Below, in pieces: positions 13,771 to 25,731 of a stretch of DNA of 30,843 nucleotides (the stretch's first letter is position 1; each line of letters opens with the position of its first letter). The translations under genes were made by a program, and so were the position numbers. The notes beneath the pieces are model-generated. The model searched no databases and was not told the DNA's origin. It saw nothing but the letters and a program-made list of their open reading frames with translations. The DNA is from a virus. Location: the IMG/VR virus record IMGVR_UViG_3300030380_000936, positions 1 through 30,843 of that record; one strand, written 5' to 3'.

Positions 13771-15301
13771 TAGGTGGTCCTGCTAATTGTTGCTGTTGCT
13801 GCATCTGTTGCATTTGCTGCATCATTGCAACTATCTCTCTACGCTCATCTGCGTCACGAATCAACCCATCAGGTACACCAAACTTTTTAGCTAGGTGAAT
13901 AGCAGTCTCTTCTGAGTTAATTAATACGTTAGTTGTATCAGGGCCAAAGTAAGCATTAACAAGCTCTAGAAATCTAGAAACGGAAGTAATGTCTTGATTA
14001 GATTGAGCTTGCGCTAAAGGTGAAGACGATCTTATTTTTACTTCTCGACCATTAACAGTAGGCATTTCTATACGGCCCTGTTTCTTAAGAATATAAATTA
14101 CTCTTTGCAAAACAGGCTGCACTAACTCAGCTTGCAGTCTACCAAATGCTGATCCTATCCTGCGTGACAAATCTGCCATACGTTCAGCAACTTCTGTAGC
14201 AGATGCAGGAGTTCTGTCTGGATTTCCTAGCATATCATTGTATAATGCGCGTTTTATATTCAAGCGCATATCGCTTAGAACTATATCAGCAACATCAAAT
14301 CTTCCTGCCGATTGGATTGGCTGCAATCCACCAGATTGAGGTGACTTTGGTATTATCGTGCCAGGGACTAAATTGATAGTATCTGGGTTAATAATGCCAT
14401 CATCATCCATTTGGTAAATGCCAGAGATAGCCATCTGTGCATTTTCTAATATTAACTGAATAGTAAGATTAGTAGTCTTGATAGCAGATAGAGCATTAAT
14501 CAATGGACCTCTGCCGTACACTTCTCCTGCACACTTAGACCATCTGAAACAAACATAAGGATTAGAACCTACGCCTTTAAACTTCTGCTCTTTAATATAA
14601 GTTTTAGTAGACATATCTATTACATAAAGGAGATAAGCTTCTTCATTTCGTTTGCTATAATCTTTGCAAAGAACTTCTAGCAAAGTACACTTACCCTCTG
14701 GATCTCTTTGCACTCTTTGCTGAACTTTAGGATCAAGCTTTGCATCAGGATACAAGATTACTATCTCAGAGTTCCTGATACCTTTTCTTTCTCTAAATAC
14801 ATGATCTATCTTATCATCAGGCCCAGTATCTAAAACAACATGAGGTAATGGTATCGCTGAAAATGTAACAGGATTTATTGCATCACCCTCATCTACACAC
14901 AGTACACCAGTACCTACTGCTAGATCCATGAACGCTTCATGTACTTCCTGAGAGAAGTTTGAGTTCTGTAGTATTTCAAATACATACTCAGTAATCTCAT
15001 CGAGATCATTATCTACAAAGTCACGTTCTTCTTTTGGTATTTCAGATCCTGCGATTAAATCTGCCCAACGTGCAAAGTTTGGAACTAATCCCGATTGTAG
15101 CCTCGAAGCAAACTCTTGAACGCCAACCACCGCTGTTTCGTCAAAGATCTTATCATCTCTACGCTGACCTGCAGTTTCATAATAAAAAGACTCACGCTGC
15201 GGTAGAGCATACTCATAACATTCCTCAAAGAGGTCAACAAAGTTTTGCCTATGTGCTTTAGCTTTTTCATATCGTTCTAACTTCTGTTTTGGATCTTGCA
15301 T
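13757..15301 (-). CDS. Portal protein (head-tail connector)
   Basis: This encodes 514 residues of the T7 gp8-type portal family. It has an opening helical region with Y-A-L-P-Q-R, then F-A-S-R-L-Q-S-G-L-V-P, R-W, and later a P-A-S-A-T-E-V-A-E-R motif. The C-terminus ends in a Gln- and Met-rich tail (residues about 490-507) and then a P-P-I-A-A-E end. The portal forms the dodecameric DNA gate and the packaging-motor dock. The length agrees with gp8 (536). The ATG at 15301 overlaps the stop of the preceding gene. Confidence 0.92.
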   Translation of the reverse strand: MQDPKQKLERYEKAKAHRQNFVDLFEECYEYALPQRESFYYETAGQRRDDKIFDETAVVGVQEFASRLQSGLVPNFARWADLIAGSEIPKEERDFVDNDLDEITEYVFEILQNSNFSQEVHEAFMDLAVGTGVLCVDEGDAINPVTFSAIPLPHVVLDTGPDDKIDHVFRERKGIRNSEIVILYPDAKLDPKVQQRVQRDPEGKCTLLEVLCKDYSKRNEEAYLLYVIDMSTKTYIKEQKFKGVGSNPYVCFRWSKCAGEVYGRGPLINALSAIKTTNLTIQLILENAQMAISGIYQMDDDGIINPDTINLVPGTIIPKSPQSGGLQPIQSAGRFDVADIVLSDMRLNIKRALYNDMLGNPDRTPASATEVAERMADLSRRIGSAFGRLQAELVQPVLQRVIYILKKQGRIEMPTVNGREVKIRSSSPLAQAQSNQDITSVSRFLELVNAYFGPDTTNVLINSEETAIHLAKKFGVPDGLIRDADERREIVAMMQQMQQMQQQQQLAGPPIAAE

Positions 15302-15984
15302 TATAAAAACCTACTGTAGTATCCGATTCCACCAGTAGAACCAGTAATTAAAGACCTTCTACCTGCACCGCCTCTACGACCTGTACCTGCTTGTCTGCTT
15401 TGAATATTAAGTTCTCTTTCAGATCCAGACAAGACTCTTCTTCCAGATCCAACTTCTCTATCTCTTTCTACTCTCCTTCTTAGCAAAGACTGTTTTGCCC
15501 TAGCTCTTTTTATTCTTTGCCGCCTTAACTCATCTTGAGCTAAAAGCTCTTGAGCCTTCATAGCTTCGTCGGGGTCTTTGGTGTAAATACTTTCTGCCGT
15601 TACAGATGTATCTCCAACATTATCACCTATAACTGTAGTATCTGTATCAGTTGTAGTATCAGTTGTGGTATCAGTTGTAGTGTCTGTAGTAGTATTGGTT
15701 GTAGTATCGGTTGTAGTATCGGTTGTAGTGTCGGTTGTAGTGTCAGTTCTTCTTTTTTTCTTACGTTTCTTACTACGAGCTTGCTGATCGGCTAAAGCTT
15801 TTTTAGATGCAGCACTACGACTTTCTAAGTCACGATAGTATGCTTGGTTTTTAGTTTTCAAACCTAGATCCATTTTAAGATCATCTGCGGCAGAGTTCTT
15901 TGGTGCTTGCGAACTAGAGTATTTCCCAGTTGCTATATCTTGTTTGTTGCTTTTTTTCTTAGCTGTAGACTTTGGTGTGCACAT
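15301..15984 (-). CDS. Unknown low-complexity protein with a TDTT repeat tract
   Basis: This 227-residue protein has three parts: a basic, Ser/Lys-rich N-terminus; a tract of about nine T-D-T-T units (residues about 80-117); and an Arg-rich, helical then Gly-rich C-terminus ending in Y-Y-S-R-F-L. The start ATG at 15984 has GGAG 8 bases upstream. It lies between terminase large subunit and portal, so a head or packaging accessory role is likely. I know no family. The repeat tract is built from 12-base units and could vary in length between relatives. Confidence 0.7.
   Translation of the reverse strand: MCTPKSTAKKKSNKQDIATGKYSSSQAPKNSAADDLKMDLGLKTKNQAYYRDLESRSAASKKALADQQARSKKRKKKRRTDTTTDTTTDTTTDTTTNTTTDTTTDTTTDTTTDTDTTVIGDNVGDTSVTAESIYTKDPDEAMKAQELLAQDELRRQRIKRARAKQSLLRRRVERDREVGSGRRVLSGSERELNIQSRQAGTGRRGGAGRRSLITGSTGGIGYYSRFL
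15634..15747 (-). repeat. Tandem 12-base repeats coding for TDTT
   Basis: The plus strand repeats a 12-base unit of the form GTATCAGTTGTA, with variants (GTGTCGGTTGTA, GTATTGGTTGTA). On the minus strand it encodes T-D-T-T units with one T-N-T-T. Multiples of three preserve the frame when units are lost or gained. Confidence 0.85.
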
Positions 15985-23986: not shown

Positions 23987-24756
23987 TGGAACGTAAGGGT
24001 TTTATCGGTGGCTCTGACTGTGTAAAAATTATGCAGGGCAACTGGTTGGAGCTATGGCAGGTCAAGACAAGTCGCGTTGAACCTGACGATTTGTCTGACA
24101 ATATTGCGGTGCAGCTTGGTGTGCATACTGAGCAGTTCAATTTGGATTGGTTTGCAAAGCAGCATGATTGTGTTCTTGGTGGCTTTCAGTCTGCTTACAA
24201 AAAACAAATCGGTGATGTACCTGTCAAGGGTACAGTCGATGCAATGAATGGAAGTAATCCAGTAGAAGCAAAGCACACTAATGCTTACAACAGTATGGAC
24301 GATGCGATCAAATACTACATGCCGCAATTACAAATGTATTCTCATTTGGCTCAGTCGGATGGTATCTGGGTATCAATAATTTTTGGGAATAATAAATGGG
24401 AGTCAGCATTTGTCTCATATGATGAAGAGTATTTCAATTCAATGTGGGCAGTGGTGTCAGACTTCTGGGGTTATGTGTTACGCAATGAAGAGCCAGTTGG
24501 TATTGACACACCGACACTCTCAACGAACCACATCCCGATTGATGATATGGTCATACGAGACGCAAGCAGGGACAACCAGTTCTGTTATGCCGCAATTACA
24601 TACGTCAACTACTACGAAAAGAATAGGGTCTTTGACAACGCAAAGAAAGACCTTAAACAAATGGTCGGTGATAACGAACGAGAAGTATACAACGACCAGA
24701 TCTCGGTCAAACGAGACAAACGTGGATCACTTAGAATAACAAGGAGAAATCAATGA
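23986..24756 (+). CDS. YqaJ/lambda-exonuclease-like recombinase nuclease
   Basis: This 256-residue protein has I-G-G-S-D (7-11), G-V-H-T-E-Q-F (E49), G-T-V-D-A (D85), V-E-A-K-H (E94 and K96) and Y-M-P-Q-L-Q-M-Y (111-118), the full set for a YqaJ-type PD-(D/E)XK exonuclease. It would resect dsDNA 5' to 3' and hand single strands to the ERF protein, whose gene overlaps it as ATGA. It is near the length of lambda exonuclease (226). Confidence 0.88.
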   Translation: MERKGFIGGSDCVKIMQGNWLELWQVKTSRVEPDDLSDNIAVQLGVHTEQFNLDWFAKQHDCVLGGFQSAYKKQIGDVPVKGTVDAMNGSNPVEAKHTNAYNSMDDAIKYYMPQLQMYSHLAQSDGIWVSIIFGNNKWESAFVSYDEEYFNSMWAVVSDFWGYVLRNEEPVGIDTPTLSTNHIPIDDMVIRDASRDNQFCYAAITYVNYYEKNRVFDNAKKDLKQMVGDNEREVYNDQISVKRDKRGSLRITRRNQ

Positions 24757-25184
24757 AAGACCACATAAAATTACTAATCAAAGTACGCAATGAAATACAG
24801 CCTATCAAAAAGAAAGGCAACAATCCTCACTTCAAGAGTCAGTACGCTACACTTGAGGATGTTATCGAGGCGGTTACTGAGCCACTACAAAACAATGGCT
24901 TCTTCCTCAGTCACATTTGTGGCAAGGATGAGTTCGGTGCGTATGTATCTACTGAACTATTCCATGAAAGCGGGTTTACTTTGCAAACCAAAGTTCCTGT
25001 TGTCTTGAGCAAACAAGATATGCAGGGCTTGGGCAGTGCTATTACCTACGCTAGACGCTATGGTATACTATCTATTCTCAATCTTCCTACTGAAGATGAT
25101 GATGGTAACGATGCTTCCCGAAAGGTGAGCGGCTCTCCAAGTAAGCCGCGAACAGGAGGGAATGTTCAAGAGATTAATTTCTAA
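24753..25184 (+). CDS. ERF-family single-strand annealing protein
   Basis: This encodes 143 residues. I-Q-P-I-K-K-K-G-x-N-P-H-F-K-S-Q-Y-A-T-L and G-L-G-S-A-I-T-Y-A-R-R-Y are classic ERF core motifs. The C-terminal tail is short and ends N-F. It should anneal single strands made by the exonuclease encoded just before it. AGGAG precedes the ATG. Together the pair forms an ERF recombination module, which may also circularise or replicate the genome. Confidence 0.9.
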   Translation: MKDHIKLLIKVRNEIQPIKKKGNNPHFKSQYATLEDVIEAVTEPLQNNGFFLSHICGKDEFGAYVSTELFHESGFTLQTKVPVVLSKQDMQGLGSAITYARRYGILSILNLPTEDDDGNDASRKVSGSPSKPRTGGNVQEINF

Positions 25185-25277
25185 TTCTTGGGGACACATC
25201 CTTAACGACAATTGGACCTGATGGGTGGCAGGTTTCCCCAAGAACCACCCGCTTAACTTTGAAAAGGAGCCAGAAGC
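25185..25277 (+). promoter_or_regulatory. Predicted pseudoknot leader of the SSB-like gene
   Basis: This 93-base leader begins right after the ERF stop. Stem 1 pairs ACCTG (25216-25220) with CAGGT (25229-25233), extendable by two G-U pairs. Its loop GGGTGG (25223-25228) pairs with CCACCC (25245-25250). The connecting loops are 1-2, 0 and 11 bases, the geometry of a classical H-type pseudoknot. A separate perfect 10-bp inverted repeat (25185-25194 with 25235-25244) uses the 11-base loop, so it may compete with or enclose the knot. The ribosome site AAGGAG (25264-25269) follows 13 bases later in unpaired sequence. Function is inferred from analogy with T4 gene 32. Confidence 0.6.
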
Positions 25278-25646
25278 ATGGCAGATTATGATAACACAAA
25301 CACAGGCGCAGCTTTCACACCATTTCCAACACAAAGACTTATCTTGCAGGGTAAGATCAACAGTGATGGTACTGACATGAAAGTTACTTGTGTTATGGAT
25401 GAGACAAAAGATGGCAGTCAGATAGTTGAGATATATCAGAAAGTTGGTGTCTTATTTCAGAATGAAGGTATGAAAGAAGGAGCACCAGATTATACTGGAC
25501 CACTTTTTGACAACAAAAGACTTGCAGCTTGGAAGAAAATGAAGGACGATAAACCGTATATGTCTTTTTCGGTATCGGACAAGTTGGATAAGGGTCAATA
25601 CTCAGAAGGTAAGTCATCAATAGGAAATGATGATATACCATTTTAA
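25278..25646 (+). CDS. Putative single-strand DNA-binding protein
   Basis: This encodes 122 residues. The start M-A-D-Y-D-N-T-N-T-G-A and a beta-rich body with L-Q-G-K-I-N and Y-M-S-F-S-V-S-D-K suggest an OB-like fold. The last residues, N-D-D-I-P-F, match the acidic tip by which bacterial SSBs recruit partner proteins. It directly follows the ERF gene, as expected for a recombination module. AAGGAG is 8 bases from the ATG. The family was not proven; the acidic tip and context give the call. Confidence 0.7.
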   Translation: MADYDNTNTGAAFTPFPTQRLILQGKINSDGTDMKVTCVMDETKDGSQIVEIYQKVGVLFQNEGMKEGAPDYTGPLFDNKRLAAWKKMKDDKPYMSFSVSDKLDKGQYSEGKSSIGNDDIPF

Positions 25647-25701: not shown

Positions 25702-25731
25702 GGCCTCCCTTTAATCGGGGAGGTCTTTTTA
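25702..25731 (+). terminator. Rho-independent terminator after the SSB-like gene
   Basis: GGCCTCCC and GGGAGGTC (one G-U pair) form an 8-bp stem with an 8-base loop, followed immediately by TTTTTA. This is the clearest intrinsic terminator of the window. It should close the recombination operon. The next gene has its own GGAGG site 10 bases on. Confidence 0.85.

What the first reader, a model, noticed from the sequence alone, without database searches (positions are those of the whole stretch)
25185..25277. Pseudoknot leader of an SSB-like gene: possible independent counterpart of the T4 gene 32 autoregulatory pseudoknot
Seen: the 93-base gap between ERF and SSB-like genes has ACCTG/CAGGT (25216-25220, 25229-25233) as stem 1, with its loop GGGTGG (25223-25228) complementary to CCACCC (25245-25250). 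The loops of 1-2, 0 and 11 bases are those of a textbook H-type pseudoknot. Unpaired sequence with the ribosome site follows. Known: T4 gp32 (SSB) binds a pseudoknot upstream of its own ribosome site and blocks translation. Inference: this SSB-like protein, with its DDIPF tail, may regulate itself the same way in an unrelated ERF/exonuclease module.
Basis: partly seen in the sequence, partly recalled or inferred. Interest (0 to 1): 0.85.

Follow-up and report, generated by a model that had tools for sequence, protein, structure and literature searches.

The report
Pseudoknot leader before phage SSB-like gene
Just upstream of a gene for a likely single-stranded-DNA-binding protein, many uncultivated phages carry the same intricately folded RNA knot, kept by matching mutations although its letters change freely; it is a new RNA family placed like the classic self-regulating switch of phage T4, but with an extra helix that T4 lacks and with its function still untested.

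Summary
The pseudoknot is real. The supposed free 11-base loop is mostly the 3' strand of a third helix, A (TTCTTGGGGA 25185-25194 / TCCCCAAGAA 25235-25244), giving the order A-B-C-B'-A'-C'. In 18 homologous leaders aligned by sequence alone, 98.8% of cells pair and 9 of 19 pairs show double-sided changes (0/500 shuffles); with 52 rows, 13 of 19. About 60 distinct leaders hold at least 20 A, 13 B and 10 C helices. Hits, including two scans that did not use the protein, lie directly upstream of this SSB-like gene, behind several unrelated genes. C' ends 26-29 nt before the start codon in 52/53; helix A usually starts right after the upstream stop codon. T4's gene 32 pseudoknot, parsed the same way, shares the B/C geometry and A/U-rich tail but lacks helix A. 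A translational control element is well supported. SSB autoregulation is plausible but untested; identical SSB-like proteins occur with and without the element.

The parts
25182..25184 (+). stop codon of the ERF gene (24753-25184); helix A starts on the next base
   Evidence: the same 0-nt distance in 34 of 53 parsed leaders, 3 nt in 12
   Evidence: covariation
25195..25214 (+). variable insert between A and B (10-84 nt across homologues, often with its own hairpin); in the window clade it carries TCCTT, complementary to the Shine-Dalgarno sequence
25215..25220 (+). helix B, 5' strand GACCTG
25221..25221 (+). loop 1: starts with A in 53/53 parsed leaders
25222..25228 (+). helix C (pseudoknot), 5' strand TGGGTGG
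25229..25234 (+). helix B, 3' strand CAGGTT, directly after C
25235..25244 (+). helix A, 3' strand TCCCCAAGAA, directly after B'
25245..25251 (+). helix C (pseudoknot), 3' strand CCACCCG
25252..25263 (+). A/U-rich unpaired spacer CTTAACTTTGAA with a UUAA element
   Evidence: spacers 77% A+U, TTAA or CTAA in 49/52
25264..25269 (+). Shine-Dalgarno AAGGAG of the SSB-like gene
   Evidence: conserved AGGAGCCAGAAGCATG in homologues
25278..25646 (+). SSB-like gene (122 aa, ends DDIPF): PHROG 'single strand DNA binding protein', DUF736-like
25702..25725 (+). intrinsic terminator-like hairpin after the SSB-like gene
24753..25184 (+). ERF single-strand annealing protein gene
   Evidence: Pfam PF04404, E 5.9e-22

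Best explanation
It is a cis-acting structured RNA in the leader, between two genes, of the phage SSB-like gene. Three helices (A enclosing B, and the loop of B paired with bases just 3' of A) form a compact pseudoknot ending 26-29 nt before the start codon. Its most likely job is to control translation initiation of the SSB-like gene. It separates that start site from the upstream gene, and it offers a folded nucleation site from which the SSB-like protein, when free, could spread over the unpaired A/U-rich spacer and ribosome site and shut off its own synthesis. Shown: the structure, its conservation by compensation, its linkage to this gene, and its fixed distance to the start codon. Inferred: that it acts on translation. 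Inferred with less certainty: that the SSB-like protein is the ligand.
For: Covariation of all three helices and 0/224 shuffles reaching the descriptor score. Linkage: two scans of 2.9 million viral contigs that did not use the protein gave 26/27 and 24/24 hits upstream of this gene. One strong model hit per phage record; records with diverged leader types (G002, G015, G020) are missed by the model. The leader follows the SSB-like gene behind different upstream genes: ERF, Sak, a PHROG 'exonuclease' family and an unrelated 75-aa ORF. C' end to ATG is 26-29 nt in 52/53 while the insert varies from 10 to 84 nt. Non-Watson-Crick pairs on the sense strand are nearly all G-U (23 cells), pointing to RNA. 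The T4 gene 32 leader parsed identically has B 4 bp, loop 1 = A, C 7 bp, no base between them and an A/U-rich UUAA tail. T4 and RB69 gp32 bind such a pseudoknot and repress translation although the operator sequences diverge (PMC535899). The nearest isolate by terminase has a canonical SSB with a DVPF tail at the matching position after YqaJ and a recombination-type gene, supporting the SSB role.
Against: No experiment shows binding or regulation. The SSB assignment rests on profile matches; the AlphaFold model (pLDDT 78.7) has no clear OB-fold match in PDB. About 60% of distinct homologous loci lack the leader, identical SSB-like proteins occur with and without it, and at least 9 gains or losses are forced on the tree, so the protein does not need it. 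Leaders start at the upstream stop codon, which fits ribosome-coupling models at least as well.
Confidence: 0.5

Rival explanations
1. Translation-coupling insulator or upstream-translation sensor without a protein ligand. Helix A abuts the stop codon of the upstream gene, so a ribosome terminating there covers A5 and melts A; without it A, B and C form. The element sets how SSB-like translation depends on translation of the recombinase gene.
For: A5 starts 0 nt after the stop codon in 34/53 and within 3 nt in most others. Leaderless homologues typically have about 24 nt between the genes; leaders push this to 72-177 nt. With A5 held unpaired the nested fold changes from the A+B hairpin (-21.0) to a C hairpin (-14.5 kcal/mol). 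Some leaderless ERF loci carry a simple G/C hairpin instead.
Against: An insulator would not need three covarying helices, an invariant loop-1 A and a zero-base C-B' junction. The tightness against the stop codon could be phage genome compaction.
Confidence: 0.27
2. mRNA-stability or exonuclease-blocking element. The topology (helix, 5' bulge, helix, apical loop paired with the 3' flank) is that of plant-virus exoribonuclease-resistant RNAs, so it could protect or process the SSB-like mRNA against 5' decay.
For: The same helix order as the xrRNA_D class (P1, L1, P2, L2 paired downstream; PMC6299227). A terminator-like hairpin follows the SSB-like gene, so a stable short mRNA could result.
Against: xrRNA_D has L1 and L2B sequences that are >97% conserved; here the corresponding insert is 10-84 nt and variable. 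Fixed 26-29 nt spacing to the start codon is not needed for stability. No Rfam match.
Confidence: 0.11
3. Binding site for another ligand: a small molecule (riboswitch), or a host protein such as a ribosomal protein.
For: Compact pseudoknots are common riboswitch and r-protein operator folds (general knowledge); a few unpaired or unvarying positions are conserved (A of loop 1; GAA before C' in most).
Against: Very few conserved unpaired bases, unlike known aptamers. Always the same downstream gene.
Confidence: 0.07
4. A DNA-level signal (origin, recombination or packaging site) that happens to fold.
For: It sits in a recombination module.
Against: Strand-specific, tied to the start codon by fixed spacing, and with sense-strand G-U pairs (23 cells).
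Confidence: 0.03

Closest known systems
T4 / RB69 gene 32 translational operator
   Same: Pseudoknot upstream of the ribosome site of a phage ssDNA-binding protein gene. Stem 1 short, loop 1 starts with A, stem 2 of 7 bp, no base between stems, then an A/U-rich spacer with UUAA elements. Operator sequence diverges while structure stays (PMC535899).
   Different: An extra covarying helix A pairs nearly all of 'loop 3' with bases next to the upstream stop codon (T4 loop 3 is 5 nt). Spacer to ATG 26-29 nt against 39 in T4. The downstream protein is DUF736-like, not gp32. Autoregulation not shown.
STAXI motif (tandem pseudoknots near SSB, topoisomerase and antirestriction genes)
   Same: Pseudoknots associated with single-stranded-DNA-binding protein genes (PMC2864571, section 26).
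   Different: STAXI is repeated two to three times and lies near several gene types. Here there is one copy (two in L008/L083 only), at one gene and one spacing. No Rfam match.
Dianthovirus/luteovirus xrRNA_D
   Same: Same helix topology: two stems with a 5'-side bulge, apical loop paired with the 3' flank (PMC6299227).
   Different: Conserved loop sequences missing, bulge of 10-84 nt, phage mRNA next to a ribosome site; exonuclease resistance untested.

Membership tests
T4-type gene 32 translational operator | pseudoknot 5' of the ribosome site of a phage SSB gene | tested here: met
   protein annotation
T4-type gene 32 translational operator | less structured A/U-rich segment with UUAAA/UAAA elements between the pseudoknot and the start codon | tested here: met
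   spacers 77% A+U, TTAA or CTAA in 49/52; shorter than in T4
T4-type gene 32 translational operator | downstream protein is a gp32 homologue | tested here: not met
   PHROG 18154/7364 and DUF736-like; no gp32 family among Pfam matches
T4-type gene 32 translational operator | plain H-type pseudoknot with a free loop 3 | tested here: not met
   loop 3 is the 3' strand of covarying helix A; T4 loop 3 is 5 nt
T4-type gene 32 translational operator | SSB protein binds the operator and represses its own translation | not testable with these tools
   needs binding and reporter assays
STAXI motif | match to a curated Rfam covariance model | tested here: not met
   no Rfam 15 family matched in the window or in 20 homologous loci; that STAXI is in Rfam is from memory
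STAXI motif | two or three tandem pseudoknots | tested here: not met
   single copy in nearly all loci; two only in L008/L083
xrRNA_D | P1-L1-P2-L2 with L2 paired to the 3' flank of P1 | tested here: met
   order A-insert-B-C-B'-A'-C'
xrRNA_D | more than 97% conserved L1 and L2B sequences | tested here: not met
   insert 10-84 nt and variable
xrRNA_D | blocks a 5'-3' exoribonuclease | not testable with these tools
   in vitro assay needed

The most novel reading that the evidence does not exclude
An independently evolved phage SSB autoregulatory operator. A DUF736-like ssDNA-binding protein represses its own mRNA by nucleating on a three-helix pseudoknot whose outer helix is opened by ribosomes terminating at the adjoining upstream stop codon, so one RNA integrates SSB feedback with translation of the recombination module.
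Probability: 0.25. Interest if true: 0.85.

Novelty: new variant of a known kind. Interest (0 to 1): 0.63.

Why it matters
SSB autoregulation through an mRNA pseudoknot is, to my knowledge, established only in T4-like phages. Here is a separate, sequence-diverse RNA family (dozens of natural variants with compensated helices) in the same place before an unrelated kind of SSB-like gene. If the protein is the ligand, the mechanism arose at least twice, and natural pairs of identical proteins with and without the element give ready-made controls. Even if not, it is a new covariation-supported structured RNA absent from Rfam, with an unusual knot in which three helices follow one another with almost no spacer bases.

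Tried and rejected
Chance pairing: rejected. Known Rfam RNA: no match at gathering threshold; the best sub-threshold hits near the site (a fungal snoRNA, the sodium riboswitch, an HCV element; E 1.6-6.9) are taken as chance. HDV-like ribozyme on the opposite strand: the strand order does not fit, because the partner of the first strand lies inside the hairpin loop instead of after it (reasoning). Stop-codon readthrough signal: the reading frame after the ERF stop meets TAA within seven codons. Promoter between ERF and the SSB-like gene: none found by the consensus scan. Shine-Dalgarno sequestration by the insert (CUCCUU) as a general mechanism: enriched (23/46 with >=5 nt against 9.5 expected) but confined mostly to the window's clade and absent in many types, so not general. 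Association of leader presence with an ERF upstream gene: suggestive in raw counts, not significant on the tree. Cultured-phage homologues: the SSB-like protein was not found in the phage collection at the thresholds used, and two isolates, the terminase-nearest relative Hodr and MEP301, gave no model hit. Prophage search: four genomes with related proteins had no model hit. Fold search for an OB fold: no clear match, inconclusive.

Full report
Observation. GGGTGG and CCACCC within 4-30 nt occur once in the window, against 0.01 expected.

Homologues. The SSB-like protein finds 65 loci in IMG/VR. Their upstream regions, laid side by side, show the same architecture with different letters. Further scans and a covariance model of A and B only extended this to about 60 distinct leaders among 164 distinct loci. 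Examples are A = TTCGTAGCTA/TAGCTACGAA with C = GGGGCGG/CCGCCCC (L031), A = GCAGGAAC/GTTCCTGT (L010), A = TTGTGG/CCACGA against TTGTAG/CTACGA (L224, L238), and C = GAGGGG/CCCCTC (L210). Counts among homologues are affected by how they were collected: one scan asked for CCNCC near the start site.

Statistics. On 18 leaders aligned by sequence only, 98.8% of cells pair, 9/19 pairs carry double-sided changes, and the covariation score is 0.354 against 0.135 +/- 0.016 shuffled and <=0.057 for slid versions. On the model-built alignment (52 distinct rows; the model knows A and B, not C), 13/19 pairs are double-changed, and helix C, unknown to the model, still has 3 of 6 pairs with double changes. 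Pairs 1-3 of helix A (UUC/GAA) hardly vary and so say nothing for pairing. A descriptor of the whole knot scores >=43 in 34/112 real upstream regions and 0/224 dinucleotide shuffles. In 53 parsed leaders: loop 1 starts with A in all 53, the C-B' gap is 0 in 52, B'-A' is 0 in 44, A'-C' is 0 in 40, and C' end to ATG is 26-29 nt in 52. Related sequences are not independent, but the number of helix types (at least 20 A, 13 B, 10 C) is far beyond inheritance of one sequence.

Linkage. Scans not using the protein found 27 sites (26 before this gene, one chance match in L077) and 24 sites (all in loci with this gene). In 21 phage records the model gives one strong hit per record, at this gene; records with diverged leader types are missed by the model. 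The gene upstream is ERF (PF04404), Sak (PF06378), a PHROG 'exonuclease' family or an unrelated 75-aa ORF. The leader thus belongs to the SSB-like gene, not to the gene before it. Helix A begins directly after the upstream stop codon in 34/53 and 3 nt after it in 12. L008/L083 carries two elements of different types in tandem.

The protein. It matches PHROG 'single strand DNA binding protein' families (18/18 members, best 1.6e-10) and weakly DUF736 (10/18, best 3.6e-4), and ends DDIPF. The model is all-beta (pLDDT 78.7) without a clear PDB match. Pelagibacter phage Hodr, nearest by terminase among isolates (65.5%), has a canonical SSB ending DVPF at the matching place after YqaJ and a recombination-type gene, and no leader. 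The SSB role is therefore likely, not proven.

Comparison with T4. Parsed by the same script, the T4 gene 32 leader gives B = 4 bp, loop 1 = A, C = 7 bp, no base between B' and C, loop 3 = AAGTG, and 39 nt to ATG with repeated UUAA. The published operator is a pseudoknot plus a less structured UUAAA/UAAA segment, and RB69 keeps the structure while the sequence diverges (PMC535899). The window element shares the core and the spacer character (77% A+U, TTAA or CTAA in 49/52), but pairs loop 3 into helix A. A short A-containing loop 1 across a 6-7 bp stem is a general trait of H-type pseudoknots, so this is likeness, not descent.

Mechanism. Fixed spacing to the start codon and exclusive linkage argue for action on translation of the SSB-like gene. 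Autorepression is the most economical ligand model by analogy. Against it, identical proteins occur with and without the leader and at least nine gains or losses are required, so the element is an optional regulator. The contact with the upstream stop codon makes a coupling or insulating role a strong rival: with A5 held unpaired, as under a terminating ribosome, the nested fold changes from the A+B hairpin to a C hairpin. Whether A, B and C coexist or alternate cannot be decided from covariation; the invariant loop 1 and zero-base C-B' junction favour B and C coexisting. STAXI and xrRNA_D were considered as families and fail defining features.

Verdict. A real, new, covariation-supported RNA family of uncultivated phages; function probably translational control of an SSB-like gene; autoregulation open.

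Noticed in passing
L008 2824-2981 (= L083): Two leader elements of different sequence types in tandem before one SSB-like gene, suggesting that the elements recombine as modules.
   Followed up: partly
L133, L137, L148, L155, L159, L173 upstream of the SSB-like gene: Leaderless ERF loci, some with SSB-like proteins identical to leader-bearing ones, carry a simple G4/C4 hairpin with a TTAATT loop instead; in L148/L159/L173 the loop GTTAATT is complementary to the AATTAAC that follows.
   Followed up: partly
L201, 131-nt gap before the SSB-like gene: A larger leader that seems to keep A-B-C but with an extra domain inside the loop of B.
   Followed up: no
L036, L037, L030, L162 and similar loci, 149-161 nt gap: Instead of the leader a small ORF seems to lie between the recombinase and SSB-like genes, perhaps encoding a mini zinc-ribbon (CPKC...C, CPRC...C patterns read by eye).
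   Followed up: no
window 25199-25203 with 25264-25268: The insert of the window's clade carries CUCCUU/UCCUU complementary to the Shine-Dalgarno sequence, a possible clade-specific sequestration.
   Followed up: partly
window 25702-25725: Terminator-like hairpin with a T run after the SSB-like gene.
   Followed up: partly
window 15644-15748: 12-bp tandem repeat, 8.8 copies, coding for a TDTT-rich stretch in the minus-strand ORF 15301-15984.
   Followed up: no
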